From Rubricoccus marinus (GTDB lineage Bacteria; Bacteroidota; Rhodothermia; Rhodothermales; Rubricoccaceae), in NCBI RefSeq assembly GCF_002257665.1, contig NZ_MQWB01000010.1, forward strand, positions 62,001-126,000: a DNA stretch of 64,000 nt, read 5' to 3'. The first letter of the stretch is position 1; the number at the start of each line of letters is the position of its first letter. Below, piece by piece: positions 31,305 to 64,000 of the stretch. The notes under the pieces were generated by a model, which was not told where the DNA came from, made no database searches, and saw nothing but the letters and a program-made list of their open reading frames with translations. The position numbers and the translations under genes were made by a program.

Positions 31305-31424
31305 AGACGTGCGGTACCGCATCAGGCCTCGCAGTCGCCCGTCTCAACCGCGAGATGTTGCCTGGGCCGCGTCAGGCCAGGACCAATGCTCCCTAAACCG
31401 CTGACCCACGCATCCTCGAACGCT

Positions 31425-39192: not shown

Positions 39193-39203
39193 CCCCGCCT
39201 GCG

Positions 39204-39791: not shown

Positions 39792-39813
39792 CGCGAGTAG
39801 TCACCCGCACCCA

Positions 39814-41283: not shown

Positions 41284-41310
41284 GCACTCGTTTTCACTGC
41301 AAGAGTCATT

Positions 41311-41326
41311 TTCACCGAGCGGTGAA
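41311..41326. promoter_or_regulatory. TTCACC-N4-GGTGAA operator-like dyad upstream of abiEi-like gene
   Basis: TTCACC (41311-41316) and GGTGAA (41321-41326) form a perfect dyad. TTTTCAC (41291-41297) and GGTGAAA (41339-41345, covering the GTG start) are further half-sites. Known AbiEi antitoxins repress their own operon by binding inverted repeats, so this is a good candidate autoregulatory site. Confidence 0.5.
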
Positions 41327-41339
41327 GTAGCTTGCCAGG

Positions 41340-42428: not shown

Positions 42429-43279
42429 AGACGACCGAATTCGACTACCCCTCCCGCGCCGTCGAAGCCACACGCCGCGTGCTCTTGGAACTGGCGCGCG
42501 TGCTCGGTGAGTATGGCGACCACATCGTCTTAGTCGGCGGCTGGGTCCCCGAACTTCTCGCTCCCGGCGCAGGCCACGTCGGCTCGACCGACGTTGACCT
42601 CGCGCTCGACCACGTCGCGCTCTCGGACACGGGCTACGCCCGCCTCCGCGACCTCCTGGAGAACGCGGGCTACCGGAACGACCCCGACCCAGCCCGCCAG
42701 TTCGTGTTCTACCGCGACGTGACTCTCGGCGACGGCGGCACGCCGGACCCCGTTGTCGTCGAACTCGACCTCCTCGCGGCCGAGTACGGCGGGACGGGCC
42801 GGAACCGCCGCTCCCAGGCGGTGCAGGGCACGCGCCCGCGCAAAGCCAGGGGCGCTGACTTGGCTTTCGAGCGAGATCTCACGGTCGAGGTCGCCCTCGA
42901 CGGTGCCCTACCTGACGGGCGCCTTGCCCGCTCTCAAATTCGTGTGGCTGGTCCCGTCCCGTTCCTCGTCACCAAGGCCGCTGCCCTCGCCCTCCGCGAC
43001 AAGCCGAAGGACGCCTACGACGTCTGGTTTCTTCTCCGCCACCACCCGGCAGGCCTCGACGGACTGGCGGCGGCCATCGCCGAGCAGGCAGGCCACGGCC
43101 TCGTGCAAGAAGCCCTCGGCCGTCTCGGCGACGCTTTCGCATCTGTCGACCACCACGGCCCCGTCGACGTTGCCGGCTTCCTCAGCCTCAATCCGGGCAC
43201 AGACGAGTACGATCAGGTCCGGCAGGATGCGTTCCAGCGCGTAGCGACTCTCCTCTCGCGAATCGATCCCACGTCATGA
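42425..43279 (+). CDS. AbiEii/AbiGii-like nucleotidyltransferase (toxin)
   Basis: The 284-residue protein has the nucleotidyltransferase motif of the AbiEii/AbiGii family: HIVLVGGWVPELLAP (about 37-51) followed by STDVDLALD with the two metal-binding aspartates. VVELDLLAAE and VRLLVPFLVTKAAALALRDKPKDAYDVWFLL-type segments follow (FLVTKAAALALRDKPKDAYD is seen). These enzymes are proposed to transfer nucleotides to tRNA or protein and stop growth. The start codon is TTG, overlapping the upstream stop. The stop TGA overlaps the Argonaute ATG (43276-43279). So toxin and pAgo are translationally coupled. Confidence 0.8.
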   Translation: MKTTEFDYPSRAVEATRRVLLELARVLGEYGDHIVLVGGWVPELLAPGAGHVGSTDVDLALDHVALSDTGYARLRDLLENAGYRNDPDPARQFVFYRDVTLGDGGTPDPVVVELDLLAAEYGGTGRNRRSQAVQGTRPRKARGADLAFERDLTVEVALDGALPDGRLARSQIRVAGPVPFLVTKAAALALRDKPKDAYDVWFLLRHHPAGLDGLAAAIAEQAGHGLVQEALGRLGDAFASVDHHGPVDVAGFLSLNPGTDEYDQVRQDAFQRVATLLSRIDPTS

Positions 43280-45657
43280 GCATTATCCTCAACGCAGCCC
43301 CCCTCTCGTTCGACCGCGACACGATCGACATCGGCTACCTCCCGGACGAGGGTAAGGAGGCCTCCGCAGCCCTACGTGAGGAGTACAGAGACACCCACGT
43401 ATTCCGCTTTGACCGTCGAGAGGGCCTGATCGCCAACGTCGGCGTTGCCGGGGCGGCCCCTCTCGGAGATACTAAAGCCCAGCGGCTCGACGAAAATCTC
43501 TACCTCGCGAGTCGAGTAATCCAGAGCCAGATCGTCTCGTGGCTCAAAGGGCGCTACACCGTCCTCCGCCGCCGCAACCCCGTCATCTTCTGGGCCTCTG
43601 CTCAGCGTCACCAACTCCTAAGTAGGGCCGTCCAAGATGTCGCCCAAAAGCGAAACGCGGAAATCAGTCCGCTCTCCGGTTTGGACGTGTACGTCCGGTT
43701 CCGGCTCGACACCCGCCTGCTCTACCCAAAGGGCAACAAACCGACACCGTACCTCGGCCTCCTAATCGACCTCAATACGTCCAACGTGATGGACATCCCC
43801 GTCAGCGAGTTGATGAGCCGGGGGCTAGATCCGCGTGGGATGTACGTGGGGCAGCGTTCGAAGGAACGAGACGACTTCCTGCTCCCCCGATTCGAGACGC
43901 TCGGTCGTGTCCGAGACGTGCGAGACGGACGCCTCCTCCTCACAGACCAGAAGCAGGGAGATGGTGACAGCGGCGGCCTTGCCGAACAGATCGAGGCGAG
44001 GTCGGCTCTCGTTGAGCCCCGGTCCGAGAACCTAGCCGCCGCGATTCACACCGTCTACGGTCGAGACGCACGTGCCATCGGGGACCGGTTGCACACGCTC
44101 AGGCGCTCTTATGCGACCGCCACGGGGCAACTGGGTCATCTGGAGGACACCCTCGCAGGCCTACGAGACCACGTTGCGCTGAACGTGGGTGGGGCGACCG
44201 CCCGCGTCGGAGATTTCCTCGAACGTGGAGACGGCCTCTTTCCCCTTATGATCTCGACGAGTCGCCCGACGTGCCTGTTCGGACCTCAAGGGCGAAAGAC
44301 CGGGCAACACCCTGATGATGGTGTCAGCAAGTACGGGCCGTTCCAGTACATGCTGCACGAGGCGAACGAGCCCCTCGTCGTCGTCGTCTGCGAGGCGAGC
44401 GAGCGCGTCCGCGTCGAGCAGTTCGTCGACGAACTTCGAGACGGGTTCCCCACCTCGGAATGGGAGGGGGCAACCAAGAACGCCCAGGTCCGCCGCGAGA
44501 ACCCATATGCGGGAGGGCTCCTCGGCAAGTACCACCTCCGGCGAGTGAGGTACGAGTACGAGGAGATGCCGGACGGGCGACCGGAGACGTACCGTGCTGC
44601 TATCGGGCGAGTCCTCGGGAGGCTCCCGAGGCGCCCTGACCTCGCTATTGTCCAAACCAGGACCGAATACAGGGGACTCAAGGGGGACGCCAATCCCTAT
44701 TTCGTTGCGAAGTCCGAGTTCATGACGAAGGGGGTCCCGGTCCAGGCCGTCACGTCGGAGAAGGTCGAGGCCGCACCACGGCAGATCCCGTACATCCTCA
44801 ATAATGTCGGGCTCGCTTCCTACGCTAAGCTCGGCGGCACGCCGTGGGTCATCAGCACCCGCAACCCCAGCAGCCGTGAGGTCGTCATCGGCATCGGGTA
44901 CACCGAGTCGTTCGAGCGCCGCCTCGGCCCCCGCAAGCGGTACGTGGGCATCACCACCTTCTTCCAGGGCAATGGGCGCTACCTCGCGTGGGACGTCACG
45001 CGAGAAGTCGAATTCGAGGGGTACGCCGAGGCCCTTCTCGACAGCCTCCGCAACACCATCCGCTATGTCGAGACGGAGAACGAGTGGGAGCCGGGCGATC
45101 GCGTCCGCCTTGTGTTCCACGTCTACAAACCGCTGAAACGGACCGAGATCGAGGCGGTCCGGGGCGTCGTTGATGACCTCCTGCAGGACCGGTACGCAGT
45201 GGAGTTTGCGTTCCTCAACCTTACCACCTTCCACGCATTTCGGCTCTTCGACCCCGACAAGGCGGGCGTCCCGTACTACCCCCCGGGCCGTCGGGGGAAA
45301 GTCATGAAAGGCCCCGGCGTCCCCGATAGAGGGCTGTGCTTCCAACTCGATCCCCGGACTGCGCTTCTCCAACTCGTCGGACCCCGCGAGTTGAAGACCG
45401 ACCTCGACGGTGCCCCCGAGCCCATGCTCATCGAGATCCATCCGGACTCGGATGTCGACGACCTCACCTACCTCGTCCGCCAGGTCTTCCACTTCTCCTT
45501 CCTCTCGTGGCGGAGCTTCTTCCCATCGGGAGAGCCTGTGACCATCCTCTACTCGCGGTGGATCGCTCAGCGGCTCGCCGACCTCCGGCCCGTCACGGGC
45601 TGGGACCCCGGCGCCGTCACGCTCGGGGCACTGCGAGGCAGCAAGTGGTTCTTATGA
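43276..45657 (+). CDS. Long-B prokaryotic Argonaute, catalytically inactive
   Basis: This 793-residue protein has the layout of long-B prokaryotic Argonautes: N, L1/PAZ-like, L2, MID and PIWI. The MID region shows NPYFVAKSEFMTKGVPVQ and the strong signature ASYAKLGGTPWVIS (about 515-527). In PIWI the strand that should carry the first catalytic Asp reads VVIGIGYTES, with Gly541. The region of the third acidic residue reads RLVFHVYKPL, without Asp. The C-terminal FHFSFLSWRSFFPSGEPVTI matches the long-B group. It should be guide-loaded and target-sensing but unable to cut, acting through the nuclease encoded next (4-nt overlap at 45654-45657). Confidence 0.9.
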   Translation: MSIILNAAPLSFDRDTIDIGYLPDEGKEASAALREEYRDTHVFRFDRREGLIANVGVAGAAPLGDTKAQRLDENLYLASRVIQSQIVSWLKGRYTVLRRRNPVIFWASAQRHQLLSRAVQDVAQKRNAEISPLSGLDVYVRFRLDTRLLYPKGNKPTPYLGLLIDLNTSNVMDIPVSELMSRGLDPRGMYVGQRSKERDDFLLPRFETLGRVRDVRDGRLLLTDQKQGDGDSGGLAEQIEARSALVEPRSENLAAAIHTVYGRDARAIGDRLHTLRRSYATATGQLGHLEDTLAGLRDHVALNVGGATARVGDFLERGDGLFPLMISTSRPTCLFGPQGRKTGQHPDDGVSKYGPFQYMLHEANEPLVVVVCEASERVRVEQFVDELRDGFPTSEWEGATKNAQVRRENPYAGGLLGKYHLRRVRYEYEEMPDGRPETYRAAIGRVLGRLPRRPDLAIVQTRTEYRGLKGDANPYFVAKSEFMTKGVPVQAVTSEKVEAAPRQIPYILNNVGLASYAKLGGTPWVISTRNPSSREVVIGIGYTESFERRLGPRKRYVGITTFFQGNGRYLAWDVTREVEFEGYAEALLDSLRNTIRYVETENEWEPGDRVRLVFHVYKPLKRTEIEAVRGVVDDLLQDRYAVEFAFLNLTTFHAFRLFDPDKAGVPYYPPGRRGKVMKGPGVPDRGLCFQLDPRTALLQLVGPRELKTDLDGAPEPMLIEIHPDSDVDDLTYLVRQVFHFSFLSWRSFFPSGEPVTILYSRWIAQRLADLRPVTGWDPGAVTLGALRGSKWFL

Positions 45658-46925
45658 GCTCCCAATCCGAGTCGCCGCCGGGTCCCCCACCCGACGCCTT
45701 GGTTGACCCCATCGCAGACCGGAGGCAGATCTTGCGTGCCGTCGTGGAGGGGGGCTTCGAGGGGGCCAGCCGCCAGTCCCACGGTTTGGTGCTCCGGCTC
45801 CTCCACATGTCGCTGCCCCCAGACGACCTGCTCCGGAGACCGTTCGATACGGATGGGGCCGTGAGCGCACTCTCCTACGAGGGCTACCCTCCGATTGCCT
45901 ACCTCGGGTTTGCGATCGGTGCGGGTGCAGCGGATGCTCAGGCGAAGGCGCAGTTCGCGGAGAGGCTCCGGAGTATGATCGAGCGGGACGGGACGATCCT
46001 CTCAGCCCTGATCGCCGACGATGCGGCCTTGCTTGGCGTCGCCGACGGCCTCTCTTCCCTCGAAGGCGAGGCCTCCAGTGACCTCGCTGTGGGCCTCGCG
46101 AACGCGGCGTCTGCGGCGTCTGGAATGGGCCGTCTCCGAGCCCTCGCGCTTGACTTGATCGAACCAAGGGGGCGACTGTCGGTCCGTGTTGGTACAGACT
46201 CCTTGAACGCAGCCACGACGGACCTCGCGCTTCGCCGACCATGGCCGCGCGCCTACGAGAGCGTGCCCCCTCTTGCGAACGACGAGCGCGTACGTCTCCT
46301 TGCCCGTGTGGTATCGGAGCCTGCCCCAGGTCCCGGTGACCTCGAGCGCGCTTCCGCGTGGCTCGTCGCGCTTGACTCGCTCGTCTCAGAGGCCGCTAGC
46401 GGAGCGGTGCCGACGACGCGCGACGTGGTCAGGCTGCTCAACCGTACACAGGGGGCAATGAAGAGGTGGGTATGGGAGGAAAAGCCCCGGCGGAGCGGGA
46501 CTGCCCCAGCTCGGTGGCTCATTGACAACGAGTACCACGTGCAGGACTTCCTCTACGCTGTCTTGTACCCGCTGTTTGGGGCCGAAGTGCTCGAGGAGCA
46601 GTACATCAAGGGGTTCGGCTTTACCCAGCCCCGGTACGACCTGTCCATAGAAGACCTCTCTCTCATCATTGAGGTCAAATTTGCCCGCACCAAGAAGGAT
46701 TTCAACAAGTTCGAAGAGCAGATCGCGGGGGACCTGGGTCTCTACTTCGGGCCACAAAGTCCCTACGAGGCCCTCGTCGCCTACGTCTACGACGACTGCA
46801 ATACCCATTACCCTGAGCTGTACGACGCATTCCGAGACGCGCTTCTCAAACGCGACGACCGAATTGTAGATGTCGTCGTCGTCCGCCGACCGAGCATGAT
46901 TCCGAGCCGGTCCGCCAGAGGCTGA
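45654..46925 (+). CDS. PD-(D/E)XK nuclease, pAgo-associated effector
   Basis: The 423-residue protein has a helical N-terminal region (about 20-270) of unknown fold and a C-terminal PD-(D/E)XK-type nuclease domain: EYHVQDFLYAVLYPLFG (helix with E293), RYDLSIED (D329) and LSLIIEVKFARTKKD (E340-V-K342). This matches the layout of nucleases encoded with inactive long-B Argonautes (BPAN type), which degrade DNA when the Argonaute is triggered. Its ATG overlaps the pAgo stop, indicating tight coupling. It ends 24 bases before the convergent helicase gene. I infer, but cannot prove, that it is the killing effector of this operon. Confidence 0.85.
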   Translation: MSSQSESPPGPPPDALVDPIADRRQILRAVVEGGFEGASRQSHGLVLRLLHMSLPPDDLLRRPFDTDGAVSALSYEGYPPIAYLGFAIGAGAADAQAKAQFAERLRSMIERDGTILSALIADDAALLGVADGLSSLEGEASSDLAVGLANAASAASGMGRLRALALDLIEPRGRLSVRVGTDSLNAATTDLALRRPWPRAYESVPPLANDERVRLLARVVSEPAPGPGDLERASAWLVALDSLVSEAASGAVPTTRDVVRLLNRTQGAMKRWVWEEKPRRSGTAPARWLIDNEYHVQDFLYAVLYPLFGAEVLEEQYIKGFGFTQPRYDLSIEDLSLIIEVKFARTKKDFNKFEEQIAGDLGLYFGPQSPYEALVAYVYDDCNTHYPELYDAFRDALLKRDDRIVDVVVVRRPSMIPSRSARG

Positions 46926-50863: not shown

Positions 50864-51112
50864 ATGCGCCTCACCGTCACCGTTCCCGACGACGTCGCCG
50901 ACCAGGCGAGACAGCTCGCCACCGAGTCGGAGCGCTCCGTCTCATCCGTCGTCGCCGAGGCCATCGCGGGGCACGTCGCGACCGAGCGCCGCCGCCGCGC
51001 CTTCGGGGCCATCGACGCGCTCGTCGGCTCCGCGGCTCCCGATCCAAACGGCGCCGCGCAGTTCGACGCTGAGCTCGACGCGCTCCGCGCGGGCTCCGAC
51101 CGCGAGCTCTGA
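50864..51112 (+). CDS. VapB-like antitoxin (ribbon-helix-helix)
   Basis: This 82-residue protein opens with MRLTVTVPDDVADQARQLA and SERSVSSVVAEAI, a ribbon-helix-helix DNA-binding fold as in VapB/CopG antitoxins. Its C-terminal tail probably binds the toxin. The TGA stop shares one base with the ATG of the PIN toxin (51110-51114), so the pair is coupled. It likely represses its own promoter, for which the dyads at 50705-50755 are candidates. Confidence 0.85.
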   Translation: MRLTVTVPDDVADQARQLATESERSVSSVVAEAIAGHVATERRRRAFGAIDALVGSAAPDPNGAAQFDAELDALRAGSDREL

Positions 51113-51540
51113 TGGAGACGAGCACCACCAGCGACACTGTGCTCGGTTTCGACACCGGGTTCTTCCAGCGCCTCTACGCACGCGACGCCCAGGCGACGAC
51201 CGCCTGGGACGACGTACGTGCCGAGCGCGCCGTCGGCGCCATCTCCTGCATCACGCTCTTCGAACTCGAGCGCCTCGGCCTTCGGGGCGGCGTCCTGCCC
51301 CGCGACGTGGCCGAAGGGCTCGTCCGCTCGCTCCCCGTCACGTGCCGCGTCGTATGGCTCGGGGCGGACGACGGGGCCGACCGGCTCCACCGTGCCGTCC
51401 GACTCGCACACGGAAACGGGCTCGCGATGGCCGACGCGATCATCCTCACCTCGCTCCTCGACGCCGGCGCGACAACCGTCTACACGACGGACTCCGACTT
51501 CGAGCGCTACGACGGCCCCGTGCACGTCGTTCAGCTTTAG
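51112..51540 (+). CDS. VapC-type PIN-domain toxin
   Basis: The 142-residue PIN protein has its first catalytic Asp in LGFDTGFF, the conserved glutamate in SCITLFELERLGLRGG, and the distal acidic residues in LAMADAIILTSLL and VYTTDSDFERY. As a VapC it should cleave tRNA or rRNA when not bound by its antitoxin. It is encoded directly downstream of VapB with a one-base overlap, the standard arrangement. Confidence 0.85.
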   Translation: METSTTSDTVLGFDTGFFQRLYARDAQATTAWDDVRAERAVGAISCITLFELERLGLRGGVLPRDVAEGLVRSLPVTCRVVWLGADDGADRLHRAVRLAHGNGLAMADAIILTSLLDAGATTVYTTDSDFERYDGPVHVVQL

Positions 51541-52427: not shown

Positions 52428-52464
52428 GGGGGACCTTCGGGATACGTGCAAAATGTCATCATAG
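52428..52464. repeat. Candidate terminal inverted repeat of the outer Tn3-family element
   Basis: Sequence beginning GGGGGACCTTCGGGATACG directly follows the stop of the truncated Tn3 transposase and has the GGGG-start form of Tn3-family terminal repeats. Its partner would lie right of the window, so it cannot be confirmed. Confidence 0.4.
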
Positions 52465-53333
52465 CGGTGGCGGCTCCTCGGTCAGCCCGAGCGGACGCGG
52501 CACGAGCGGCGGAGGCGCACCGTCCATGTCGAGCACGTACTCCCCGAACCGCTTGACCCGCGACGTCCCGTACGGGCTCAGCCGCGCGACCTGGCCTGGC
52601 GTGACCGCCCAGCCCTCGGCGACGAGCCCAGTCAGTGCGTCGCTCATGTCGGCCACGTTCTGGAGCATGATGGCCGACGCCACGAGGTCGGTGTACTTGA
52701 CCCGCTTCTCCCGCTCCACAGGGTCCCCGGTCGGAATCGACTCACCCCCGAACCGGATCCACTCGGTGAACCCGTTGTACGCCTCGACCTTGGTGGTCGC
52801 CGCTCGGATGCTCCGCCTCAGCGGCAGGTCGGTCACGTAGTCCAGCAGGAACAGCGTGCGGACGACACGGCCGAGCTCGCGGAACGCCCGGTAGAGCGCG
52901 TTCTTCCGCGCCTGCGTCCCCAGCCGCCGGAGCAGCATCGAGGGGAGCACGGCTCCGGCCTGGACCGAGAGCGCGACCTGCATCAGGTCGGCCCAGTGGC
53001 GCTCGATGAGCTTCCAGTCGACCGTCCGCGTGAACAGCGCGTCGAGGTGGCGGTAGCTCGCCTCCGCGTCGGGCCGGTAGAATGCCACGTCGTCCCAGGT
53101 CCGCATCCGGGGCATGAGCCGGATGCCGAGCAAGTGCGCCAGTCCAAACACAGGCTCCGACTGCCCGTGCGTGTCGGCGTGGACGGTATCGGGCTGGAGG
53201 ACCGAGTCGTTTCTCAGGAGCCCGTCCAGGATGTAGACGGCCTCCCAGACGCCGCAGGCCACGAAGTGCGAGAACAGCGCGATGTAGGTGTCGGAGACGT
53301 GGTGATAAGCCATGCCGCCATACACCCCGTGCC
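52459..53333 (-). pseudogene. tnpA: Tn3-family transposase, 3' part (split by transposon insertion)
   Basis: This segment encodes the C-terminal 291 residues of a Tn3-family transposase (YGGMAYHHVSDTYIALFSHF, then the DDE-domain part QPDTVHADTHGQSEPVFGLAHLLG). The gene is interrupted at 53333, where the left terminus of another Tn3-family element begins. Its 5' part resumes on the same strand at 62616 with the same reading frame. Joining the two across one copy of the GTGCC duplication restores ...ERSVRHGVYGGMAYHH... without a frameshift. So it was intact before the insertion, which is recent enough that both pieces remain open. Confidence 0.9.
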
Positions 53334-53378
53334 GGGGTCCGACAAGTATCGGAACAGGATTGTCCGGTAGGCCGGCCT
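53334..53378. repeat. Left terminal inverted repeat of the inner Tn3-family element
   Basis: The repeat begins GGGGTCCGACAAGTAT and pairs with the right terminus at 62571-62615, with about four mismatches over 45 bases. The GGGG terminus is characteristic of the Tn3 family. Confidence 0.9.
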
Positions 53379-53571
53379 AACCGGCGGATCGGCTCGCCAC
53401 CACCCGTCTTCGGCGCGTCGGGTTGCCGAATCGGGTGGGGCGCCATCGTTACTGGCGCGAGGGCGCCGCCTCATGCTGGTCTTGAATCAGATGGATGTGG
53501 ACCCTGAGTCAGCCTTGCCTGCCGATAGCGCATGCATTATGGTGCCCTCACTGATGCCGGCTCTCCGAAAG

Positions 53572-55023
53572 TCAGCGGAGCACCGCAAAGCGGGCGGCTA
53601 CCAAGATGTCCCTGCCTACCATGGCTCGCACGACGTACGTCCCAGGCGCGAGCGTGGGCACCGCAAGCCGGTGATCGCCCCGGCCTCTGGCGCCAGAGGC
53701 GAGCACCGCCACCTCCCGGCCCCGCGCGTCGAACACGGCCACCCGCACCGATGCCTCCGGCGACGCCAGCACGAGGCGCGCCTCCGCCCCTCCATTCGAC
53801 GGGTTCGGCGCCACCGTCAACTCCACGCCGGAGGCCTCCGGCGCGCGTGGGGCCGACGCCGTGACCGCCCACGGCCGCCCCACCGGCTCCGCCGTCCGCC
53901 ACAGCCCCCGCCTTGTCGCGAGGTAGAGCCGCCCCGTCCGGTCCAGCGCCATCTCCTCCGGCTTCTCCCCGTCGTAGCCGCCCGTCCCCTCCGCCCGCTC
54001 CCACGTCGCGCCCCCGTCCCGGGAGCGGAGGAGCACGCCGGGGTCCGGCGGGGGGCCCGCCGTGCTCGCCACGCTCGCCCACACCTCGACGGCGCCTTCC
54101 CCCGCGACGGGGCTCGCGTCGACGGCCAGCGCCCGGGCGTAGATCGGGTACGCCAGCCCGTACGCCCCGTCCTCCGCGCTCAGCACCTCCGACCACGTCG
54201 CGCCCCCGTCGTCGGAGCGGGCGACGAACCCCCGCCGCGGGGCGAACGCCGCGCCGGAGGCGTAGACCGCGCCGCCGTAGGGGTGCGCGGGGTCGGGGGC
54301 GACCGAGAGCGCGCTGGCGATGTAGCCGCCCTGGGCGTAGAGCCCCGTCGGCTCCCACGACTCCCCCGCGTCGGTGGAGCCGACGACGCCGTTGTAGACG
54401 CCGACGAAGAGCCGTCCGGTAGGGATGGAGTCCGAGGGCGGGAGCTCGGCGATGGCGCGCCCCTCGCCGAGCGTGCTCCGGCGGGTGGTCCACGTCCCCC
54501 ACTCGCCGTCCTCCGCCGAGCGCCAAGACTCCGGCCCCTCGAGGGCGAAGAGGACGGGGCCGCCGAAGCGGCCGCGGAAGGCGGGGAGGTCGGCCTCGAA
54601 GAGGACGCGGGGGCTGAGCCCGAGGCCGACGTCCTTCCTCCACGTCCGCCCCCCGTCGGTGGAGCGGTCGAGGTCGGTGGGGCCGAAGAGGGCGCCGAGG
54701 ACGAGCGCTCCGGTAGAGGTCACGAGGAGGTCCTCGCCGGTGCAGGGTCCGATCCCACACAGCGGCACCCACGTCCCCGCCTCAGGGGCGAACCGGTTCG
54801 GCTCCCCGAACACGGCGAGGAGGGTGTCGCCCTCGGGGGCAGCGGCGGGAATCCACGCGAGGCCCACGAACGTCCCGCCCCACCGGGGGTGGTCTGGAAT
54901 CCGCTCCCACGCGGGGCCGCCCTGTGCCGCCAGTAGCTGCGGGCAGAGCGCCAGCAGCGTTAGGGCAAGGATGGCAGTGAATCGCAATTCTGCGGCTCGG
55001 GCGGAACGTGCAGAAAACGTCAT
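53572..55023 (-). CDS. Secreted Asp-box (BNR) protein with type IX sorting domain
   Basis: The 483-residue protein has a signal peptide (about residues 15-33, ending LLAAQ). A beta-propeller-like region is built from Asp-box repeats (STDGGRTW, STDAGESW, SDDGGATW, SRDGGATW), as in sialidases and cell-surface proteins, but I see no full sialidase active site. The C-terminus is a sorting domain (VAPNPSNGGAEARLV... LAPGTYVVRA). Its ATG directly follows the stop of the metalloprotease gene (TAGATG), so both are one transcript. The palindromic 18-mer at 53693 lies within it. Confidence 0.8.
   Translation of the reverse strand: MTFSARSARAAELRFTAILALTLLALCPQLLAAQGGPAWERIPDHPRWGGTFVGLAWIPAAAPEGDTLLAVFGEPNRFAPEAGTWVPLCGIGPCTGEDLLVTSTGALVLGALFGPTDLDRSTDGGRTWRKDVGLGLSPRVLFEADLPAFRGRFGGPVLFALEGPESWRSAEDGEWGTWTTRRSTLGEGRAIAELPPSDSIPTGRLFVGVYNGVVGSTDAGESWEPTGLYAQGGYIASALSVAPDPAHPYGGAVYASGAAFAPRRGFVARSDDGGATWSEVLSAEDGAYGLAYPIYARALAVDASPVAGEGAVEVWASVASTAGPPPDPGVLLRSRDGGATWERAEGTGGYDGEKPEEMALDRTGRLYLATRRGLWRTAEPVGRPWAVTASAPRAPEASGVELTVAPNPSNGGAEARLVLASPEASVRVAVFDARGREVAVLASGARGRGDHRLAVPTLAPGTYVVRAMVGRDILVAARFAVLR
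53693..53710. repeat. 18-bp perfect palindrome GCCTCTGGCGCCAGAGGC
   Basis: This is identical to the palindrome at 16860-16877, here inside the sorting-domain region of the secreted Asp-box gene. It shows that the repeat occurs in coding sequence of a transposon passenger as well as between genes. Confidence 0.8.
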
Positions 55024-58000
55024 CTATCGGGTGACGGTGAACCGCCGGGCGTGAGTCTCCGTCCGCCCGTCGGCGGTCTCCACAGTGAGGCGGAGGACGT
55101 AGACCCCGGGGGCGAGCCCAGCCGGGATCTCTACAGTCTGTGCCCCGGAACCGCGCACAGGCGAGCCAAGGGCTCCCACCTCGCGGCCGAGCACGTCGAA
55201 GACCCCGAGTTGCGCCGTGGCCCCATCCAGTACCACGAAGGAGACGTGCGCGCCGCCGCGCGTGGGGTTCGGGCGGACAGGGCTGAGCGACGCCTCAGTC
55301 GCCTGGACCTCAAGAGCGGACGGCGCCGCAGCCTCCGCTGTGGCGCCCTTCGTCGAAGGCTCCACGCCGAGCGAGGAGAGGTACGCAGCGGCGAGGTCAG
55401 CCTCGATGGCCCCCTGCTCGTGCTCCCGCAGCGTTTCCAGGGCGGCCTGCGCGCCCCTCTCGTCGCCCAGGTCCGAGAGGAGATACACGCGGGCGGTGAG
55501 GGCAGCGGCGCGGTCGTCTAGGTCGCCGCCCATGAGGTCCTCGGTCAGCCGCAGCGCGCCGTCCACGTCGCCGTCACGGTGGAGTAGCCCGACCAAGGCC
55601 TTCTGCGCGGCGCGGCGCACTGGATCGGCCCTATGCCGGGCGTACGCCTCCACGGCCTCGCGGGCACCGGGCGCGTCTCGCCGGGCCATGCTCGCCGCGA
55701 GCGTGACGGCGGGGGCGGCCTCCCGTCCGCCCGCCGCGACCGCGGCGGCGATGTCGGCGAGCGCGGAGGCCGGGTCCTCGAACGCGGCGCCCTCCGCGCG
55801 CCCCAGGGGAGATGGCGAGGCGGCGCTAGCCCGAGCGCCCGCACCGGACGACTTCATCGACGGGGCCTGGCTCACGCACGCAGCGTTGGGGTTCACGTAC
55901 GGGTCTTCAAGCAGCCATTTCGACTCGTCGACGTAGCCGCCGTTGAGCTCGCTCGTCGCGAACGGCGGGGTCGGGCTCCCCCACCAGTCGCACACGGCGA
56001 CGACGGAGGTCCCGCTGCCGCGCGCGCGCACGTCGAACCCGGTGTTGCCGACGAACCGGTTGCGGCGGAAGTTCTCGTTGGTGACGGAACCGGCGCTGAC
56101 GGAGCCCCCCGTCTTCGCGAAAACGCCCCCGTCAAGGTTGCTGTCGGCGCTGTTGAACCCGTTGTTGTGGTGCCCCCCGTAGCGGGGGTAGTAGTACTCG
56201 GCGAACCGGAGCTCCGCGTTCGACACGGCGGCAACGCCCACTCCGGCGTTATCGAAGAACTCGTTGCCTCGGTTCGACCCGATGATCGGGTGGACCCAGG
56301 CGTCGGTGTTGTACCCGGCCACGAGTCCGTGCCTAGCCACCCCTAACACCCTGTTCTGTACGAGGCGCGTTGCCGCGTAGTTGTCGAGCACGATGCCGTC
56401 GAACGTGAGGTCGAGGAGGTCGTTGTCGCGGATCTCGGACTCGGAGCTCGCGCCGACGACCTTGATTCCGATGGCCTTGCCAGGAGCGGCTGTCCTGCGG
56501 ATCGTGGTCCCTACGACCGACGCGTTTCCGCTATCGATCCAGACCGCCGCGCCGGGGTTGGTCACGCCCCAAGATGCATCCCCTACGTCTAGAATCGAGC
56601 TGTTCGAGATCGTCGCGTCCGAGGTGGAGGACGCGACGAGGACGCCGTGCCATCCCGCTGCGGGGTCCGCGGCCTCGAACGTCGCCCCGTCGGCGTCGAG
56701 CGTACCGAAGACGATCAGCCTCGAGTCAGGGCCGAATCGGAGGACGACCCCTGGCTCGACCGTCAGGGTCGTGAACGAGTCGACGAAGAGGTCGCCCTCG
56801 AACGTAACCGTGACCCCCTGGCGGATGGTGAGGTGGGACCCGTTGTCGACGCGGAGCTCGTTGAAGGTGAGGTTGTCGGTCCGGCTCGTGATCGTCCAGT
56901 CCTTCCTCACCCGAGCGATGGGCTCCGAAGTGTAGTCGGTGCTGAAGTCGAACGTGATCCCGTTCCCGGTTCCCTGCCGGATATCGTCGATGGCGAAGTA
57001 CCCGAGATTGAGGATCTCGTCCGGAACGAGGTCCAGGCTCCCGTACCCGTAGACGTTGGGGACCGTCCACGGGGTCAGCTGCCGGTCCACGCCTGGGCGC
57101 CAGAGGTCCCCCTCGTGGTCCCCCTCGTCGAGGTCATTGTCCGAAGGCACCATGTCACGAGACCAGCTATTGTCAAATCCGGATCCGGATCCCGCATACG
57201 CCGCCCTCTCGATCATGAGCCCCGTTACGGGGAGGCCCCACTGCGTCGTGGTGCACCCGTTAGCGCCAGCGTAGGAACGGGGGTGGCGCTCTCCGAAGTA
57301 CGTCGTGCGCTGGACGTTCGAGATGTAGAGCCCTTGCTCCCCGTTCCCGTACCTAGGCGCGGACGTGGGGAGGGTACCGAGACCGAGCCGGTAGCAGCCG
57401 CCCGTAGTGAAGAGGTCGCTCACCGAGTACGTCCCCGAAGACGTGAGACTCTGGCACTGGATCCACTTCGACGAGCCCTGGAGGCCGAACTTGAGGTTGA
57501 TCACCTCCCTCTCAAACGCCGACAGCAACGGCGCGACGGCTTCGTACCGCCTAGACCTCGAATCCGTCGAGACCATGAGCCCGAACCCGTTCTGGTCTCT
57601 GTTCGCGCTCTCAGAAGACGTCTCGCTAGAGGGTACGCGGTTATCTCGGAAGTATGCGAGGTGAGGCCCCCACGTGTCGTGCCCAAACTCGTGAGCCCAG
57701 AGGTCCACGTTGTCTTTGATTCGATCGATAGACTGCCAGTCATTCCACGAACCGGACTTCCCGTTGTCCACCTTCACTCCATACACGCTCGGGTCCGACT
57801 CGAAGAACCCGATGTTCGAAACTCCTCCTCTTGGACAGGAGTAGCCCTGGGTAGATGAATATGTCCCCGCCCAGCCATTCACGCAGTTTCTATCGCCCTG
57901 GCCGAAACCCCTGATAACAAAGAAAAGGTGGTCTAGGTATCCGTCCCCGTTCTCGTCGTAGTCGCCGAAGTTGACCCCCTCTACGTCCCTCAAGTGGTCC

Positions 58001-58485
58001 ATCGCCTCCCGTGCGAGCATACCCTCATCGAGGTCGCCTAATACACCCCCATTTCGGTTTATGGGCCTGAGGTAAGCAGCTTGTGGGCTTGAGGTCGTGT
58101 ACGAGTACACATCCCCATACATTCGAAAAGCTCCTCCCGACTGGTCGGAGAGGTACCTCGTCAGCGAACGGGCGGGGACCGGCCCCGTCTTAGATGAAGC
58201 GAGGTACTCGCTCGATTCCGGCGGGAGTGCCATAGACGACTGCCAGCCGTCTGGGTGGCAGACGTAATCCCTGTTGTCGTCGGCGAACTTCACGAAGATG
58301 ATCGCCGCCCGGAAGTCACCTGTAACGGGTACCGTGGCTGCTGCGCTTGAAGCCACTCCAACAGGCTGATCGGGATGTCCCTCGGAGCAGACCGCCTGAA
58401 GAGGTTCTCCTGAGTTCGTCTGCGCGAGTGGAGACGAACACAGGACGAGAGCGCAGAAAGCGAGGAGTACGTAGGACCGTGTCAT
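55024..58485 (-). CDS. Secreted M6-like metalloprotease with beta-helix and sorting domain
   Basis: The 1153-residue protein has a signal peptide (LLAFCALVLCSSPLAQ). An M6/immune-inhibitor-A-like metalloprotease domain follows, with ADYDENGDGYLDHLFFVIRG-type strand (DYDENGDGYLDHLF is seen) and the zinc motif LWAHEFGHD (H265, E266, H269). A right-handed beta-helix (about 545-830) ends with CDWWGSP. Next come a helical repeat region (about 880-1050) and the C-terminal sorting domain (VRPNPTRGGAHVSFV... GLAPGVYVLRL). It should be exported by type IX secretion and may degrade host or prey proteins; the substrate is unknown. It is a passenger of the Tn3-family element. Confidence 0.85.
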   Translation of the reverse strand: MTRSYVLLAFCALVLCSSPLAQTNSGEPLQAVCSEGHPDQPVGVASSAAATVPVTGDFRAAIIFVKFADDNRDYVCHPDGWQSSMALPPESSEYLASSKTGPVPARSLTRYLSDQSGGAFRMYGDVYSYTTSSPQAAYLRPINRNGGVLGDLDEGMLAREAMDHLRDVEGVNFGDYDENGDGYLDHLFFVIRGFGQGDRNCVNGWAGTYSSTQGYSCPRGGVSNIGFFESDPSVYGVKVDNGKSGSWNDWQSIDRIKDNVDLWAHEFGHDTWGPHLAYFRDNRVPSSETSSESANRDQNGFGLMVSTDSRSRRYEAVAPLLSAFEREVINLKFGLQGSSKWIQCQSLTSSGTYSVSDLFTTGGCYRLGLGTLPTSAPRYGNGEQGLYISNVQRTTYFGERHPRSYAGANGCTTTQWGLPVTGLMIERAAYAGSGSGFDNSWSRDMVPSDNDLDEGDHEGDLWRPGVDRQLTPWTVPNVYGYGSLDLVPDEILNLGYFAIDDIRQGTGNGITFDFSTDYTSEPIARVRKDWTITSRTDNLTFNELRVDNGSHLTIRQGVTVTFEGDLFVDSFTTLTVEPGVVLRFGPDSRLIVFGTLDADGATFEAADPAAGWHGVLVASSTSDATISNSSILDVGDASWGVTNPGAAVWIDSGNASVVGTTIRRTAAPGKAIGIKVVGASSESEIRDNDLLDLTFDGIVLDNYAATRLVQNRVLGVARHGLVAGYNTDAWVHPIIGSNRGNEFFDNAGVGVAAVSNAELRFAEYYYPRYGGHHNNGFNSADSNLDGGVFAKTGGSVSAGSVTNENFRRNRFVGNTGFDVRARGSGTSVVAVCDWWGSPTPPFATSELNGGYVDESKWLLEDPYVNPNAACVSQAPSMKSSGAGARASAASPSPLGRAEGAAFEDPASALADIAAAVAAGGREAAPAVTLAASMARRDAPGAREAVEAYARHRADPVRRAAQKALVGLLHRDGDVDGALRLTEDLMGGDLDDRAAALTARVYLLSDLGDERGAQAALETLREHEQGAIEADLAAAYLSSLGVEPSTKGATAEAAAPSALEVQATEASLSPVRPNPTRGGAHVSFVVLDGATAQLGVFDVLGREVGALGSPVRGSGAQTVEIPAGLAPGVYVLRLTVETADGRTETHARRFTVTR

Positions 58486-58647
58486 TGGAGAGCAAAGGGG
58501 AGGGGAGAAATCTCCTCGAGCACGGGCCAGCTCGAAGCGTCGAAGTAACCATACGGCTCCAGGCTTACAATACCAAGCAAAGGAAGTATCACCGGCCTCC
58601 CAAGGACACCATCACGTCGCTGTGGGTACGTCGTTCGCATCTCCAGC

Positions 58648-59349
58648 TCAGCCGCTTATCTCTGCACGTTCGCCCTCGATGCGGCGGAGGTGGGCCTTGA
58701 CCGTGTTGTAGGCGAGCCCCGTCCGACGCGCCATCTCCGCCTTCGCTTCGCCCCCGTCGAGCATCTCCTCCAGCGCCGCCCGGTGCGCGTCGAACGTCGA
58801 CGGCCGTCCGAGCACCTTCCCCTCAGCCCGCGCCCGCTCCAATCCAGCGATCGTCCGTCGGCTGATCTTCTGGGCCTCGTACTCGGCGAAGTAGCTCAGC
58901 ACGCCCAGGAGCACGTGGGACACCAGCTCGTTCTCGGTCGAGAGGTACGGCTCGGTGTACGACCGGAACCGGACGCCGAGCGCCTCGAGCTGCTGGAGGT
59001 AGGCGACCGTCTTCCGGATCCCCTCGCGGCTGAACCGGTCCAGGCTCCAGAACACGAGCGTGTCGAACTCCCGCCGCTCGGCGGCCTCGAAGACGTCGGC
59101 GAATGCCGAGCGCTCGCGGCGCCCCTTCCGCCCGGACTCACGGTCGACGAACTCCCGGAGCGTGCCGTCAGGCCGCGCGAGGTCGTAGCCCTCCTGCTCC
59201 AGGAAGCGGCGGAGTTGGAGCCGCTGGTTCTCTTCCGTCTGGTCGCCGTCGCGCTTGGAGACGCGCAGGTAGAGCGCCGCCCGCTTCTTTGGTGGGAGCG
59301 GAGCTGGTGATGGGTCGGTGGGCACGGGCGGGACGGGTGAGGCGAGCAC
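58648..59349 (-). CDS. tnpR: Serine recombinase/resolvase of the Tn3-family element
   Basis: The 233-residue serine recombinase has a nucleophile Ser in YLRVSKRDGDQTEENQ (S31), the LVFWSLDRFSREG segment, and a C-terminal helix-turn-helix (AEMARRTGLAYNTVKAHLR). It should resolve cointegrates at a res site. The start shown is GTG. The divergent arrangement with the transposase is as in Tn3 itself. The first 20 residues are Pro-rich and unlike the family, so a later start may be used. Confidence 0.9.
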   Translation of the reverse strand: MLASPVPPVPTDPSPAPLPPKKRAALYLRVSKRDGDQTEENQRLQLRRFLEQEGYDLARPDGTLREFVDRESGRKGRRERSAFADVFEAAERREFDTLVFWSLDRFSREGIRKTVAYLQQLEALGVRFRSYTEPYLSTENELVSHVLLGVLSYFAEYEAQKISRRTIAGLERARAEGKVLGRPSTFDAHRAALEEMLDGGEAKAEMARRTGLAYNTVKAHLRRIEGERAEISG

Positions 59350-59370
59350 GTTATATATGGGCCGCTCGCC
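59341..59370. promoter_or_regulatory. Candidate res site I / divergent promoter of the Tn3-family element
   Basis: GGCGAGC (59341-59347) and GCTCGCC (59364-59370) flank the AT-rich core ACGTTATATATGGGCC in an otherwise GC-rich region. The 30-bp dyad with a TATA-rich centre is like a resolvase crossover site. It lies between the resolvase and the transposase start, where Tn3-family res sites are found. Confidence 0.5.
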
Positions 59371-59517
59371 GGGGTGTCAACAACCACTCGTTTCTTGCCG
59401 CCCCCCGCGACGCCGACCAAACCGGCCCGTACGGCGCGCAGAGCGGCACGGCTGGAGTACCCCTTTCCTGACACCCCCGACCCGCTACCGCCCGCCTCCG
59501 GCGGCGGGGTCTGCGCT

Positions 59518-62500
59518 ATGCCCGTCGAGTTCCTCTCCGACGACCAGGCCGCCCGCTACGGCCACTACACCGAGACGCCTTCGGCCGAGCAGCTCGCCCG
59601 GTCCTTCTACCTCTCCGACGCCGACCGAGCCGCGGCCTGCGAGCGGCGAGCCGACCACAACCGGCTCGGGTTCGCCGTCCAGCTCGGGACGGTTCGGTTC
59701 CTCGGCACGTTCCTCTCCGACTTGCGCGAGGTCCCACCCGTCGTCGTCCGCACCGTAGCCGACGCCCTGGGCGTCGAGGACGCGGAGGACGCGTTCGCCC
59801 GGTACCTCCGCCGGGCGTCCGCCCGGCGCGAGCACGCCGCCGAGATCCAGCGCCGCTACGGGTACGCCCCGTTCGCCGACCCGTCGGAGTCGTTCCGCCT
59901 CGTGCGCTGGCTCTACGCGCGGGCATGGCTGGCCCACGAGCGGCCGTCGGTGCTCTTCGACCTCGCGACGGCCCGGCTCGTCGAGCGGAAGGTGCTCCTC
60001 CCCGGCGTGACCGTGCTCGCGCGTCTTGTGGCCCGCGTCCGTGCCCGTGCTGCCGAGCGACTCTACGAGGCCCTCGCTCAGATCCCGGACGCTGGCGAGC
60101 GTGCTCGGCTCGAGGCCCTACTCGCCGTCCCGGAGGGCGACCGCACGAGCCGACTCGAAAAGCTCCGCCGGGCGCCGACTCGGATCAGCGGTCCGGCCCT
60201 CGTCCGCGCCCTCGCGCGCGTCGAGGACGCCAGATCGCTCGGGGACTACACGGGTCGGCTCGCTGCCTCCGGCGTCCCTCGCGCGCGCCGCGATGCCCTC
60301 GCCCGGTACGCGGCCTCGGCGTGGGCCGGTACGATCGGCCAGATGCTTGGCGCACGCCGGACAGCGACCCTTGTCGCTTTCGCCGAGCACGCGCAGGGCT
60401 CGACGCTCGACGACGCGCTCGACCTCATCGGGCTCCTCGTGGACGACTTCTTCCGGAGCGCAGAGCGGCGGGGTAACCGCGAGCGGATCCAGCGGCAGGC
60501 CGAGTACGATCGCGCCTCGCTCCGGCTCCGCGCCGCCGTTGACGTCTTGATTCAGGCCGCCCGGTCCGGCCGCGAGCGACCCGAAGAGCATCTCTTGGAG
60601 GACGTCTTCGCCGTGGTCGGGCTCGACGCACTCGCCGAGGCCTCCGCCACCGTTGGAGAGGTCGCACGTGAGGGCGCGGCCCCGTTCCGCGAGCACCTCG
60701 TGGCCCCTGGCGGACCGTCCGTCACGTGCTCCCCCCGCTCCTACGCACGGTGGAGGTGGGCGGGGTCCGCTCGGCTCGGCCGCTCCTGGACGCCGTGGAC
60801 TTCCTACGCGCCCTGGAGCAGCGCTCGGGGCGACCGCCGATGAGCGAGGCCCCGCTCGGCGTGGTCACGCCCGCGTGGGCGCCGCTCGTACACGAGGGCG
60901 GGGGCGGCCCGAAGCGGAAGCCGTACACCCTCTGCGTCCTCGACGAGCTCGTCCGCGCACTCCGACGGCGGGACGTGTTTGTGCCGGAGAGCACGCGCTG
61001 GGACGACCCGCGTCGGAAGCTCCTGCGGGGCGAGGACTGGACGCGCGCCCGGCCTTCGGTTTGCCGCGCGCTCGGGCTCTCCCCGGACGCGGTCGGCGAG
61101 ATCGTCACGCTCCAGACCGAGCTCGACGCGGCGTACCGGCGGACAGCGGCGGGCCTGGAGGCGAACGACGCGCTTCGTATCGAGCGGGAGAAGGGGCGAG
61201 ACCGGCTCGTCGTGACCCCGCTCGACAAGCTCGACGAGCCCGAGAGTCTGGTAGCCCTCCGCGAGGCCGTCCAGGCGCGGATGCCCCGCGTCGAGCTGCC
61301 GGAGCTGCTCCTGGAGGTCGAGGCGTGGACCGACTTCGCGGGCGCGTTTACGCACGCGAGCGAGGGCGCGGCCCGGGCCTCCGGGATGACGCTGAGCGTG
61401 TGCGCGGCGCTCGTTTCCGAGGCCTGCAACGTCGGGCTCCGACCGCTGACCCGGGACGGGACGCCCGCCCTCACCGCGCGGCGGCTCTCGTGGGTCTTGC
61501 AGAACTACGTCCGGGCAGAGACGCTTGTGGACGCCAACGCCCGGCTCGTCGACTACCAAGCCACGATCCCGCTCGCGCAAGTCTGGGGCGGGGGCGAAGT
61601 AGCCTCGGCCGACGGACTCCGCTTCGTCGTCCCCGTCCGCACGCTCAACGCCGGGCCGAACCCGAAGTACTTCAACCGCGGGCGGGGCGTCACCTACTAC
61701 AACTTCACGAGCGACCAGCTCACGGGCTTCCACGGCGTCGTGGTCCCCGGCACGCTGCGGGACTCGCTCTACGTCCTCTCCGGGCTCCTCGAGCACCGGA
61801 CGAGCCTCCAGCCCACAGAGGTCGTCACCGACACCGCCGCCTACAGCGACGTCGTCTTCGGGCTTTTCCGGCTCCTCGGCTACCAGTTCAGCCCGCGGCT
61901 CGCCGACCTCGGTGACGCCCGGCTCTGGCGGATGGACCGCGCGGTCGACTACGGCCCGCTCGGCGGTGTGGCCCGCCAGCGGGTCAAGACGGACCTCATC
62001 CGGGAGAGTTGGGACGACCTGCTCCGGGTGGCGGGCTCGCTCAAGACCGGGGCCGTCGGGGCGCACGAGGTGATGCGCGTGCTCCAGCGCGGGGGGCGGC
62101 CGTCCACGCTCGCGAAGGCGGTCGGCGAGGTCGGCCGTGCGGCGAAGACGCTCTTCCTGCTCGCCTACGTCGACGACGAGGCGTACCGCCGCCGGGTGCT
62201 CACGCAGCTCAACCGGCAGGAGAGCCGGCACGCGCTCGCGCGGACCGTCTTCCACGGCCGCCGCGGCGAGGTCCGCAAGCGGTACCGGGAGGGCCAAGAG
62301 GACCAGCTCTCGGCGCTCGGCCTCGTCACGAACGCGGTCGTGCTGTGGAACACGCGGTACCAGCAGGCCGCGCTCGACACGCTCCGGGCGGAGGGCGCCG
62401 AGGTGTGGGACGAGGACGTGGCCCGGCTCTCGCCGCTGGGCTCGGAGCACATCGGGATGCTCGGGCGGTACCACTTCGAGCTGCCGCGGGAGGTCACGCG

Positions 62501-62552
62501 CGGCGAGCTCCGACCGCTCCGGGACCCGTCGGCGCCCGAGGACGGGTGGTAG
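59518..62552 (+). pseudogene. tnpA: Tn3-family transposase with a single-base frameshift
   Basis: The reading frame starts at ATG 59518 with a DUF4158-like N-terminus (MPVEFLSDDQAARYGHYTET). It continues past FREHLVA and goes out of frame near 60700. The remainder, from about 60700 (WRTVRHVLPPLLRTVEV) to 62552, is in the frame one base back. It carries the DDE region (YFNRGRGVTYYNFTSDQ, VTDTAAYSDVVFGLFRLLG, LARTVFHGRRGEVRKRY). A one-base loss, likely in the C4 run at 60704-60707, explains the break. Both parts together give about 1010 residues, normal for the family. It could be a genuine mutation, a sequencing error or, less likely, programmed frameshifting. Confidence 0.88.
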
Positions 62553-62570
62553 CCAGCCGGCCCGCGCCTC

Positions 62571-62615
62571 AGGTCGACCTACCGGACAATTCTGTTCCAA
62601 TACTTGTCGGACCCC
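62571..62615. repeat. Right terminal inverted repeat of the inner Tn3-family element
   Basis: This is the complement of the left terminus at 53334-53378 with about four mismatches, ending in GGACCCC. The next five bases, GTGCC, duplicate those before the left end. Confidence 0.9.
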
Positions 62616-64000
62616 GTGCCGGACGCTCCGCTCGCCCAAGAGCCCGTTCTCGACGAGCGGGACGTGGGTGCCGTCGGCGATGGCCGCGCGTCCCGAGCCC
62701 CAGTGGAAGGGAAGCTCGAAGCGGGTGTACTCGGCGACGACATCGCGGAGGGCGGCCTCCAACGAGTCGGTCGTGACGTGCTGGCGGTTAGTGAGTTCGA
62801 GCGCACGCGGGGTCGCGGAGTCGCCGTCGCCGACGTTGCTCGCTCGGGCGTGCCGCGAGAGCTGGGTCGGTCCGAGCCCGGTCCCATACCCGAACACGGC
62901 GAGCAGGTACCGCCGCTCGGGGGCGACGAGCTTCGGGTCGTTCCCCGACGGCGGGCCGAAGTGGCGAGCGAAGCCCGACCATGCGGCCGTGTTCTTGAGC
63001 ACGTCGAGCAGGTGCCGTTCGGGTATCCGCGCGCCGAGCGCCTCCTTGAGCGTGTCGGTCCCCTCGGGCACGAGCTCGGCCGACATCCGCTTGAGGTGGG
63101 GCTTCCCGGCCGCATCGATGGACAGCTCGGCGTTGTTGGGGAAGGCTCCGTCGTCCCGCTCGGCCGCGACTGTGAGTTGGTCACGGAGCCCGACAACGAA
63201 CTCGGCGGCCGTCGTGGGCAGTTCGAGCGCTTCGCAGTACGCAGGCAGCCGGACCTCGCACTCATCCCAGGGCAGGAGCTGCTCGCGGTAGTCAGCGAAG
63301 GCTTGGGAGCTGGGGACGAAGAGGTCGCCCGAACGGAGGGCGTCGGCAACGTGGCTGAGCACGGCCACTTCGAGTTCGCGTCGCCCGAGCACGACCTCCC
63401 CAGGACGGCCGCCGTCCTCGCGGGTCTCGACGAACGCTCGCCAGCGCAGGCTCAGGAAGCTCAAGTCGACTTCGTCGGGGAAATGGTCCCGGCGTGCCGT
63501 CCGGTGCTCCCGGACGTAGTCGAGTGCTCGGACGAGCGAACGGTCCTGCGTGGCGGGCTGCGGCTCAAGCAGGTCCAAGAGGTCGAAGAGCGCTGAGCGG
63601 TGCGCGCGGTGGGCGTCCCAAAGCAGCGGGAGGTAGTTGCCCGAGTGGTAGAGCGCGACCATCCGGTACTTCTCCCGCAGCTCGTCCGCGCCGCCGTAGG
63701 CCTCGAGCACCCGGCGGACTCGGCGTCCGAGTATCTCGTCAGGGCTCTCACTTTCGGCTTCCCCCAGCACGTCGGCGAAGGCGGTCAGCATCTCCTCCTC
63801 GATCTCGCGGTGGCGTTCGTGGAGCCGGGCGAGCGCCTGCTTGGCCCGGTTGTGCGTCCGCCGCATCCGCCGGAGGTACATCTCGGCCAAGTCGTCGCGG
63901 GCGGTGACCTGGGCGTCGTGGACGAAGCAGACGAGCAGCGCACGTCGGTGGGCGTCATCCGCCAGTCCTTTCACGTCGCCGACTTCGAGCGCTCGCGCCT
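62616..64000 (-). pseudogene. tnpA: Tn3-family transposase, 5' part (split; runs off the window)
   Basis: The reading frame enters from the right edge with EVGDVKGLADDAHRRALL and runs through AKQALARLHERHREIEEEM, VRRVLEAYGGADELREKYR and PFHWGSGRAAIADGTHVPLV. It then hits the right end of the inner Tn3-family element after SVRHG. It is the N-terminal and central part of the same transposase whose last 291 codons are at 52459-53333. The true start lies beyond the window. The open frame continuing leftward past 62616 crosses into antisense of the inner transposase and is not coding. Confidence 0.88.

What the first reader, a model, noticed from the sequence alone, without database searches (positions are those of the whole stretch)
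53572..58485. Tn3-family element carries type IX-secreted protease and Asp-box protein as cargo
The passengers are a 1153-aa M6-like metalloprotease (HEFGH) with beta-helix and sorting domain and a 483-aa Asp-box protein with sorting domain, joined as TAGATG. Tn3 passengers are usually resistance or catabolic genes. Mobile secreted surface or exo-proteins would be unusual, and would let cells acquire extracellular functions that need a resident type IX machine.
Basis: partly seen in the sequence, partly recalled or inferred. Interest (0 to 1): 0.7.

Follow-up and report, generated by a model that had tools for sequence, protein, structure and literature searches.

The report
Jumping gene carrying secreted surface-protein genes
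A Tn3-type transposon on a plasmid of a marine Rhodothermales bacterium really does carry two genes for exported proteins (a protease-like protein and an Asp-box protein, both with type IX secretion tags), and a sister transposon has the same backbone with different exported-protein genes in the same slot, so outer-surface functions appear to be exchangeable transposon cargo in this lineage.

Summary
Confirmed and extended. The two genes lie inside a TIR-bounded Tn3-family element, window 53334-62615 (9,282 bp), with 38-bp TIRs (36/38) and a perfect 5-bp duplication GTGCC. It is inserted in the transposase gene of an older Tn3, whose reading frame reopens when the insert is removed. The contig closes into a ~139-kb plasmid with a RepA gene. 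The element's own tnpA has a one-base frameshift, so this copy probably cannot move by itself. One passenger has an M6-like HEFGH domain, a beta-helix and a sorting tail; the other has Asp-box repeats and a tail. The exact pair was found once, but the kind recurs. A relative (Rubrivirga MAG) has the same TIR (3 mismatches), tnpR (90% DNA identity) and tnpA (85%), with a wholly different cargo: an S1-like lipoprotein and a sorting-tailed YWTD-propeller protein. A distinct Tn3 in another family carries PD40 lipoproteins and a sorting-tailed S8-like protein lacking recognisable catalytic motifs. All seven passengers look exported. T9SS-bearing Hymenobacter Tn3s carried no tailed cargo (0 of 8). 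Precedent: Tn3-family TnXax1 carries type III effectors in Xanthomonas. Verdict: new variant of a known kind. Inter-host transfer and function are not shown, and the sample is small.

The parts
53329..53333 (.). left copy of the 5-bp target-site duplication, GTGCC
53334..53371 (+). left terminal inverted repeat, GGGGTCCGACAAGTATCGGAACAGGATTGTCCGGTAGG
   Evidence: 36 of 38 identical to the right one; these are the only two copies in the genome at up to 3 mismatches
53372..53423 (-). about 50 bp next to the left repeat resembling the 3' tail of a related tnpA plus spacer (an IRR-type end used as left end)
   Evidence: 84-86% alignment over ~90 bp with tnpA-side ends of this element and two G049 ends; the G049 C341 left end lacks it
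53572..55023 (-). passenger 2: exported Asp-box (BNR) protein with C-terminal T9SS sorting domain, 483 aa
   Evidence: tail modelled as a 7-strand sandwich, pLDDT about 75-83, with weak fold matches to T9SS substrate tails 8gl6_D and 8glk_D
55024..58485 (-). passenger 1: exported M6-like metallopeptidase domain (HEFGH at residue 265) + beta-helix + helical region + T9SS sorting domain, 1153 aa; its TAG abuts the ATG of passenger 2
58648..59349 (-). tnpR, serine resolvase
   Evidence: PF00239 E 3e-28; 90% DNA identity to the G049 element
59350..59517 (.). tnpR-tnpA intergenic region, presumed res site and promoters
   Evidence: inferred from Tn3 organisation; MPVEFLSDDQ start of TnpA at about 59518; not tested
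59518..62552 (+). tnpA of the carrier (DUF4158 + DDE_Tnp_Tn3) split by a one-base deletion near 60707 into ORFs 59374-60843 and 60726-62552
62578..62615 (-). right terminal inverted repeat
62616..62620 (.). right copy of the target-site duplication, GTGCC
52459..53333 (-). C-terminal part of the older Tn3 transposase gene that was the target
   Evidence: PF01526 330 bits; frame joins the N-terminal part when one TSD copy and the insert are removed
62621..64000 (-). N-terminal part of the same older transposase gene (continues to about C10:126,895, beyond the window)

Best explanation
A 9.3-kb Tn3-family transposon, on a ~139-kb plasmid of a Rubricoccaceae (Rhodothermales) bacterium, carries a two-gene cassette for proteins exported by the Sec pathway and then by the resident type IX secretion system. 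Shown by sequence: the TIRs, the target duplication, insertion into an older Tn3 transposase gene, tnpR and tnpA, sorting tails on both passengers, and a sister element with the same backbone but another exported-protein cargo in the same slot. Inferred: TnpA moves everything between the TIRs by copy-paste cointegration and TnpR resolves it; this copy probably needs TnpA in trans because its tnpA is frameshifted; cargo changes by capturing DNA between tnpR and a second end, since the left end here carries a tnpA-tail scar; and the two coupled genes give an exported metallopeptidase-like protein and an Asp-box propeller-like partner placed outside the cell by the host's SprA machine.
For: TIRs and TSD. 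Empty site restores the target frame. Circular contig with RepA_C. Backbone 85-92.5% identical in G049 C341/C551 with no DNA similarity in the cargo slot, filled there by an S1-like lipoprotein and a sorting-tailed YWTD protein. G052 element with 37/40 TIRs holding a sorting-tailed S8-like protein. Seven of seven passengers have hydrophobic export N-termini. Tail density in G000 (at least 107 in 4.43 Mb) predicts 0.35 tails in 14.4 kb of cargo; 4 seen, and all three elements have one (P about 0.001; about 0.01 without the window itself). SprA in the host. Hymenobacter control 0 of 8, arsenic genes by one plasmid Tn3.
Against: Only three resolved cargo-bearing elements are known, so the association rests on small numbers and a post hoc test. 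The G049 element is split over contigs of a MAG whose TIR ends show no matching TSD. A G046 Tn3 has no cargo. The carrier tnpA is frameshifted. The exact pair is in no other Tn3. The M6 assignment is far below the curated cut-off, and one tail is just below its cut-off. GldM was not recognised in most of these genomes.
Confidence: 0.75

Rival explanations
1. Chance capture: Tn3 elements pick up whatever lies beside them, and in a lineage with over a hundred sorting-tailed genes some cargo will have tails; no special link to type IX secretion.
For: Tails are abundant in the host. The Asp-box relative is chromosomal in a sister species. Only three elements are known.
Against: About 0.35 tails expected, 4 seen; all passengers look exported; same slot refilled on the same backbone. 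No such cargo in Hymenobacter, also T9SS hosts.
Confidence: 0.35
2. Relict: the frameshift is real and the element is immobile, so the cargo is now simply part of the plasmid.
For: One-base deletion relative to the 85%-identical G049 tnpA; the two reading frames cover complementary parts of the Tn3 profile.
Against: Perfect TSD and near-identical TIRs indicate transposition recent enough to leave both intact; tnpR and both passengers are open; a one-base difference can be a sequencing error; Tn3 ends can be used by TnpA in trans.
Confidence: 0.4
3. The passengers are one form of a swappable two-gene effector module: a variable N-terminal domain on a beta-helix/helical/T9SS platform plus an Asp-box partner, used against neighbouring cells or prey, and merely spread by Tn3.
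For: The platform recurs with a different N-terminal domain, followed by Asp-box genes, in G033 (S8 protease with HGT and GTSAS motifs) and G046 (no recognised domain, 4-bp gene overlap). The G046 copy is near a CD-NTase gene and recombinases.
Against: Only three copies at 23-28% identity; no immunity gene recognised; exported proteases are commonly nutritional; N-domains might be inherited rather than swapped.
Confidence: 0.15
4. Assembly artefact joining a transposon and chromosomal genes.
For: The genome is a draft in 15 contigs.
Against: Perfect TSD, restored target frame, circular contig, and the same layout in an independent MAG.
Confidence: 0.02

Closest known systems
TnXax1 and related Tn3-family elements of Xanthomonas (PMC6304161, citing Ferreira et al. 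2015)
   Same: Tn3-family transposon whose passengers include substrates of a resident secretion system (type III effectors XopE2, XopE3, XopAI), on plasmid and chromosome, with cargo reassortment
   Different: type III instead of type IX system; tnpS/tnpT recombinases instead of a serine tnpR; plant pathogens; passenger families unrelated
Classical Tn3-type transposons (serine resolvase, GGGG-starting 38-bp TIR, 5-bp TSD)
   Same: all structural hallmarks: TIR, TSD, DDE_Tnp_Tn3 tnpA, serine tnpR
   Different: passengers are exported surface or exo-proteins rather than resistance or catabolic genes; tnpA is frameshifted in this copy
Mobile insertion cassettes: Tn3-TIR-flanked effector genes without transposase (PMC6304161)
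   Same: cargo between Tn3 ends, probably needing TnpA in trans
   Different: here tnpR and a nearly complete tnpA remain in the element
Chromosomal T9SS cargo proteases and Asp-box proteins of Rhodothermales
   Same: same domains and tails; M6-like relatives at 30-35% across the catalytic part with HE[FL]GHD conserved; Asp-box relative at 58%
   Different: those are not between transposon ends; the M6-like domain was not found elsewhere in the host's own family

Membership tests
Tn3 family transposon | about 38-bp TIRs beginning GGGG | tested here: met
   36/38 identical, 53334-53371 and 62578-62615
Tn3 family transposon | 5-bp target duplication | tested here: met
   GTGCC on both sides
Tn3 family transposon | DDE_Tnp_Tn3 transposase | tested here: met
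   PF01526 487 bits, cut-off 24
Tn3 family transposon | one intact tnpA reading frame in this copy | tested here: not met
   split by a one-base deletion near 60707; sequencing error not excluded
Tn3 family transposon | co-resident resolvase | tested here: met
   PF00239 99 bits
Tn3 family transposon | replicative transposition through a resolved cointegrate | not testable with these tools
   needs a mating-out assay
T9SS type A cargo (passenger 1) | C-terminal sorting domain TIGR04183 | tested here: met
   24.1 bits, cut-off 23
T9SS type A cargo (passenger 2) | C-terminal sorting domain TIGR04183 | tested here: inconclusive
   21.4 bits, cut-off 23; 82.5 bits with a lineage-built profile; 7-strand model with weak matches to T9SS substrate tails
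T9SS type A cargo | N-terminal export signal | tested here: met
   hydrophobic-run heuristic only
T9SS type A cargo | host encodes the SprA translocon | tested here: met
   G000:C1:2014074-2021660, 1396 bits, cut-off 200
T9SS type A cargo | secretion depends on T9SS | not testable with these tools
   wet-lab assay needed
M6 metallopeptidase | score over the curated M6 model cut-off | tested here: not met
   TIGR03296 31.1 bits against 110.8: call it M6-like only
M6 metallopeptidase | HExxH zinc motif | tested here: met
   HEFGHD at 265; MAHE[LF]GHD in all 8 aligned homologues, with a conserved downstream His
Asp-box (BNR) protein | PF02012 over cut-off | tested here: met
   38.7 bits, cut-off 27
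TnXax1 | tnpS/tnpT recombinase pair | tested here: not met
   serine resolvase only
Mobile insertion cassette | no transposition genes inside | tested here: not met
   tnpR and frameshifted tnpA present

The most novel reading that the evidence does not exclude
Rhodothermales harbour a class of Tn3-family transposons whose passenger slot is specialised for exported, mostly type IX-tagged proteins, usually a peptidase-fold protein plus a beta-propeller. The cassette is exchanged wholesale on a conserved tnpA-tnpR backbone, so surface and exo-protein repertoires move between cells that share the secretion machine.
Probability: 0.35. Interest if true: 0.7.

Novelty: new variant of a known kind. 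Interest (0 to 1): 0.55.

Why it matters
If general, type IX cargo genes can spread as transposon passengers, as type III effectors do in Xanthomonas. The outer-surface repertoire of a strain would then depend partly on Tn3 traffic and plasmids rather than descent. It also gives a tractable case of a Tn3 backbone with its whole cargo slot replaced, and a left end that may record how the cargo was captured.

Tried and rejected
Plasmid collection with the M6-like protein: no match. Viral contigs by TIR pattern and by the protein: nothing. PDB sequence search for both passengers: nothing. Structure predictions from single sequences: only the Asp-box tail and part of the beta-helix reached useful confidence, so no fold claim for the catalytic or Asp-box parts. 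A third Tn3 tnpA on the plasmid (C10:132,563-135,526) lies by a 226-aa sorting-tailed gene, but its second TIR was not found, so it is not counted. TIRs of the outer, interrupted Tn3: not found. I considered 'peptidase plus propeller' as a strict rule and weakened it: the G052 S8-like protein has GTAAA where subtilases have GTS and no HGT motif in its S8 domain, so it is probably not catalytic. The G046 Tn3 has a tailed gene nearby but outside its TIRs. Phylum-wide sampling added little: Tn3 is rare (16 of 394 genomes, mostly a family without T9SS tails).

Full report
OBSERVATION. Both genes are present, intact and abutting. A Tn3 search of the host genome found four places on one contig, C10: a transposase on the right of the passengers, a C-terminal piece at 52459-53325, an N-terminal piece at about 62613-63005, and a third transposase beyond the window. 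The 81-nt inverted repeat 53333-53413 / 62536-62616 contains 38-bp TIRs, 36/38 identical, and each is followed outside by GTGCC. Joining the flanks with one GTGCC gives one open transposase frame running through the junction (...ERSVRHGVYGGMAYHHVSD...). So a 9,282-bp element, 53334-62615, jumped into an older Tn3 transposase gene, with both passengers inside. The TIR occurs nowhere else in this genome at up to 3 mismatches.

ANATOMY. Left to right: IRL, a short tnpA-tail scar, the Asp-box gene (-), the M6-like gene (-), tnpR (-), tnpA (+), IRR. tnpA is split by one missing base near 60707 relative to the relative's gene; the two halves match positions 2-364 and 373-954 of the Tn3 transposase model. 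The contig's ends overlap by 232 bp and it encodes a RepA_C replication protein, so it is a circular plasmid of about 139.26 kb.

PASSENGERS. The 1153-aa protein has an export N-terminus, HEFGHDTWGPH at residue 265, a beta-helix, a helical stretch and a T9SS tail. It is only M6-like: 31 bits against a cut-off of 110.8. Eight aligned homologues from other families of the order (30-35% identical across the catalytic part) keep HE[FL]GHD and a later His. The 483-aa protein has Asp-box repeats and a tail just under NCBI's cut-off but strong with a lineage-built profile; its modelled tail is a 7-strand sandwich with weak matches to the RemA and NucA tails bound to the T9SS.

RELATIVES OF THE CARGO. 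The closest Asp-box relative (58%) is chromosomal in G046, same genus. The C-terminal platform of passenger 1 recurs strongly only in G033, with a Peptidase_S8 domain (HGT, GTSAS present), and in G046, with no recognised N-domain; each is followed at once by Asp-box genes with tails. The pair is therefore one form of a small two-gene family with differing N-terminal domains that also exists outside Tn3.

RELATIVES OF THE CARRIER. Tn3 transposases are rare here: 8 of 244 genomes of the class, all in the window's order. The Rubrivirga MAG G049 has the same TIR with 2-3 mismatches, a 90%-identical tnpR and an 85%-identical tnpA, and no DNA similarity between IRL and tnpR. In that slot lie an S1-like lipoprotein (SHC and GDSG present; Trypsin_2 below cut-off) and a sorting-tailed protein matching LDL-receptor-type YWTD propellers. 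Its ends are on separate contigs without matching TSDs, so its integrity is inferred. G052, another family, has a 9.2-kb element with 37/40 TIRs holding two PD40 lipoproteins, a sorting-tailed S8-like protein, a tyrosine recombinase and tnpA; that S8-like protein lacks recognisable HGT and GTS motifs in its S8 domain. G046 has a 4.1-kb Tn3 without cargo.

IS IT MORE THAN CHANCE? At least 107 tails in 4.43 Mb predict 0.35 tails in 14.4 kb of cargo; four were seen and each of the three elements has at least one (P about 0.0012; 0.010 leaving the window out). This is suggestive, post hoc and based on few elements. Among eight TIR-bounded Tn3 elements of Hymenobacter, a genus taken from general knowledge to have T9SS, none carries a tailed gene; one Hymenobacter plasmid Tn3 lies beside arsenic genes.

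CAPTURE. About 50 bp inside the left repeat align with the tnpA-side end of the transposon (84-86%), ending in the same EDGW reading, while the G049 left end lacks this. The simplest inference is that this left end came from another Tn3 copy and the DNA between it and tnpR became cargo.

MECHANISM. TnpA and TnpR roles are taken from established Tn3 biology. Export follows from the tails and the host's SprA; GldM was not recognised by its model in most of these genomes, probably divergence, so the complete machine was not mapped. Function of the passengers is inferred from domains only.

KNOWN WORK. Tn3-family TnXax1 carries type III effector genes and a lytic transglycosylase in Xanthomonas, and most TAL-effector genes identified there lie between Tn3 repeats (PMC6304161). 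Searches of the held literature found nothing on Tn3 and type IX cargo. Hence a new variant of a known kind.

Noticed in passing
L048:5000-9526 (C10:131,000-135,526): A third Tn3 transposase on the plasmid follows a tyrosine recombinase and a 226-aa sorting-tailed protein, with a PD40 lipoprotein upstream; the same order (PD40, tailed protein, tyrosine recombinase, tnpA) as the G052 element. Its second TIR was not found.
   Followed up: partly
L043:5751-12073 (G033) and L042:6503-10668 (G046): Two-gene T9SS modules sharing the beta-helix/helical/tail platform with different N-terminal domains (S8 protease; unknown), each followed by Asp-box genes with tails.
   Followed up: partly
window 38020-46925: Cluster on the same plasmid with TIR and SEFIR domain proteins, an AbiEi/AbiEii-like pair and a Piwi-domain protein: looks like a defence island.
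   Followed up: no
window 50864-51540: Ribbon-helix-helix plus PIN-domain pair, a VapBC-like toxin-antitoxin, near the interrupted Tn3.
   Followed up: no
window 18719-25829: 1702-aa sorting-tailed protein followed directly by an S8 protease gene, again an exported pair, outside any recognised transposon.
   Followed up: no
window 31386-33371: Animal haem peroxidase-like protein on a bacterial plasmid.
   Followed up: no
L042:14316-15518: CD-NTase (DncV-like) gene near the G046 copy of the two-gene module, with recombinase genes around: the module may sit in a genomic island.
   Followed up: no
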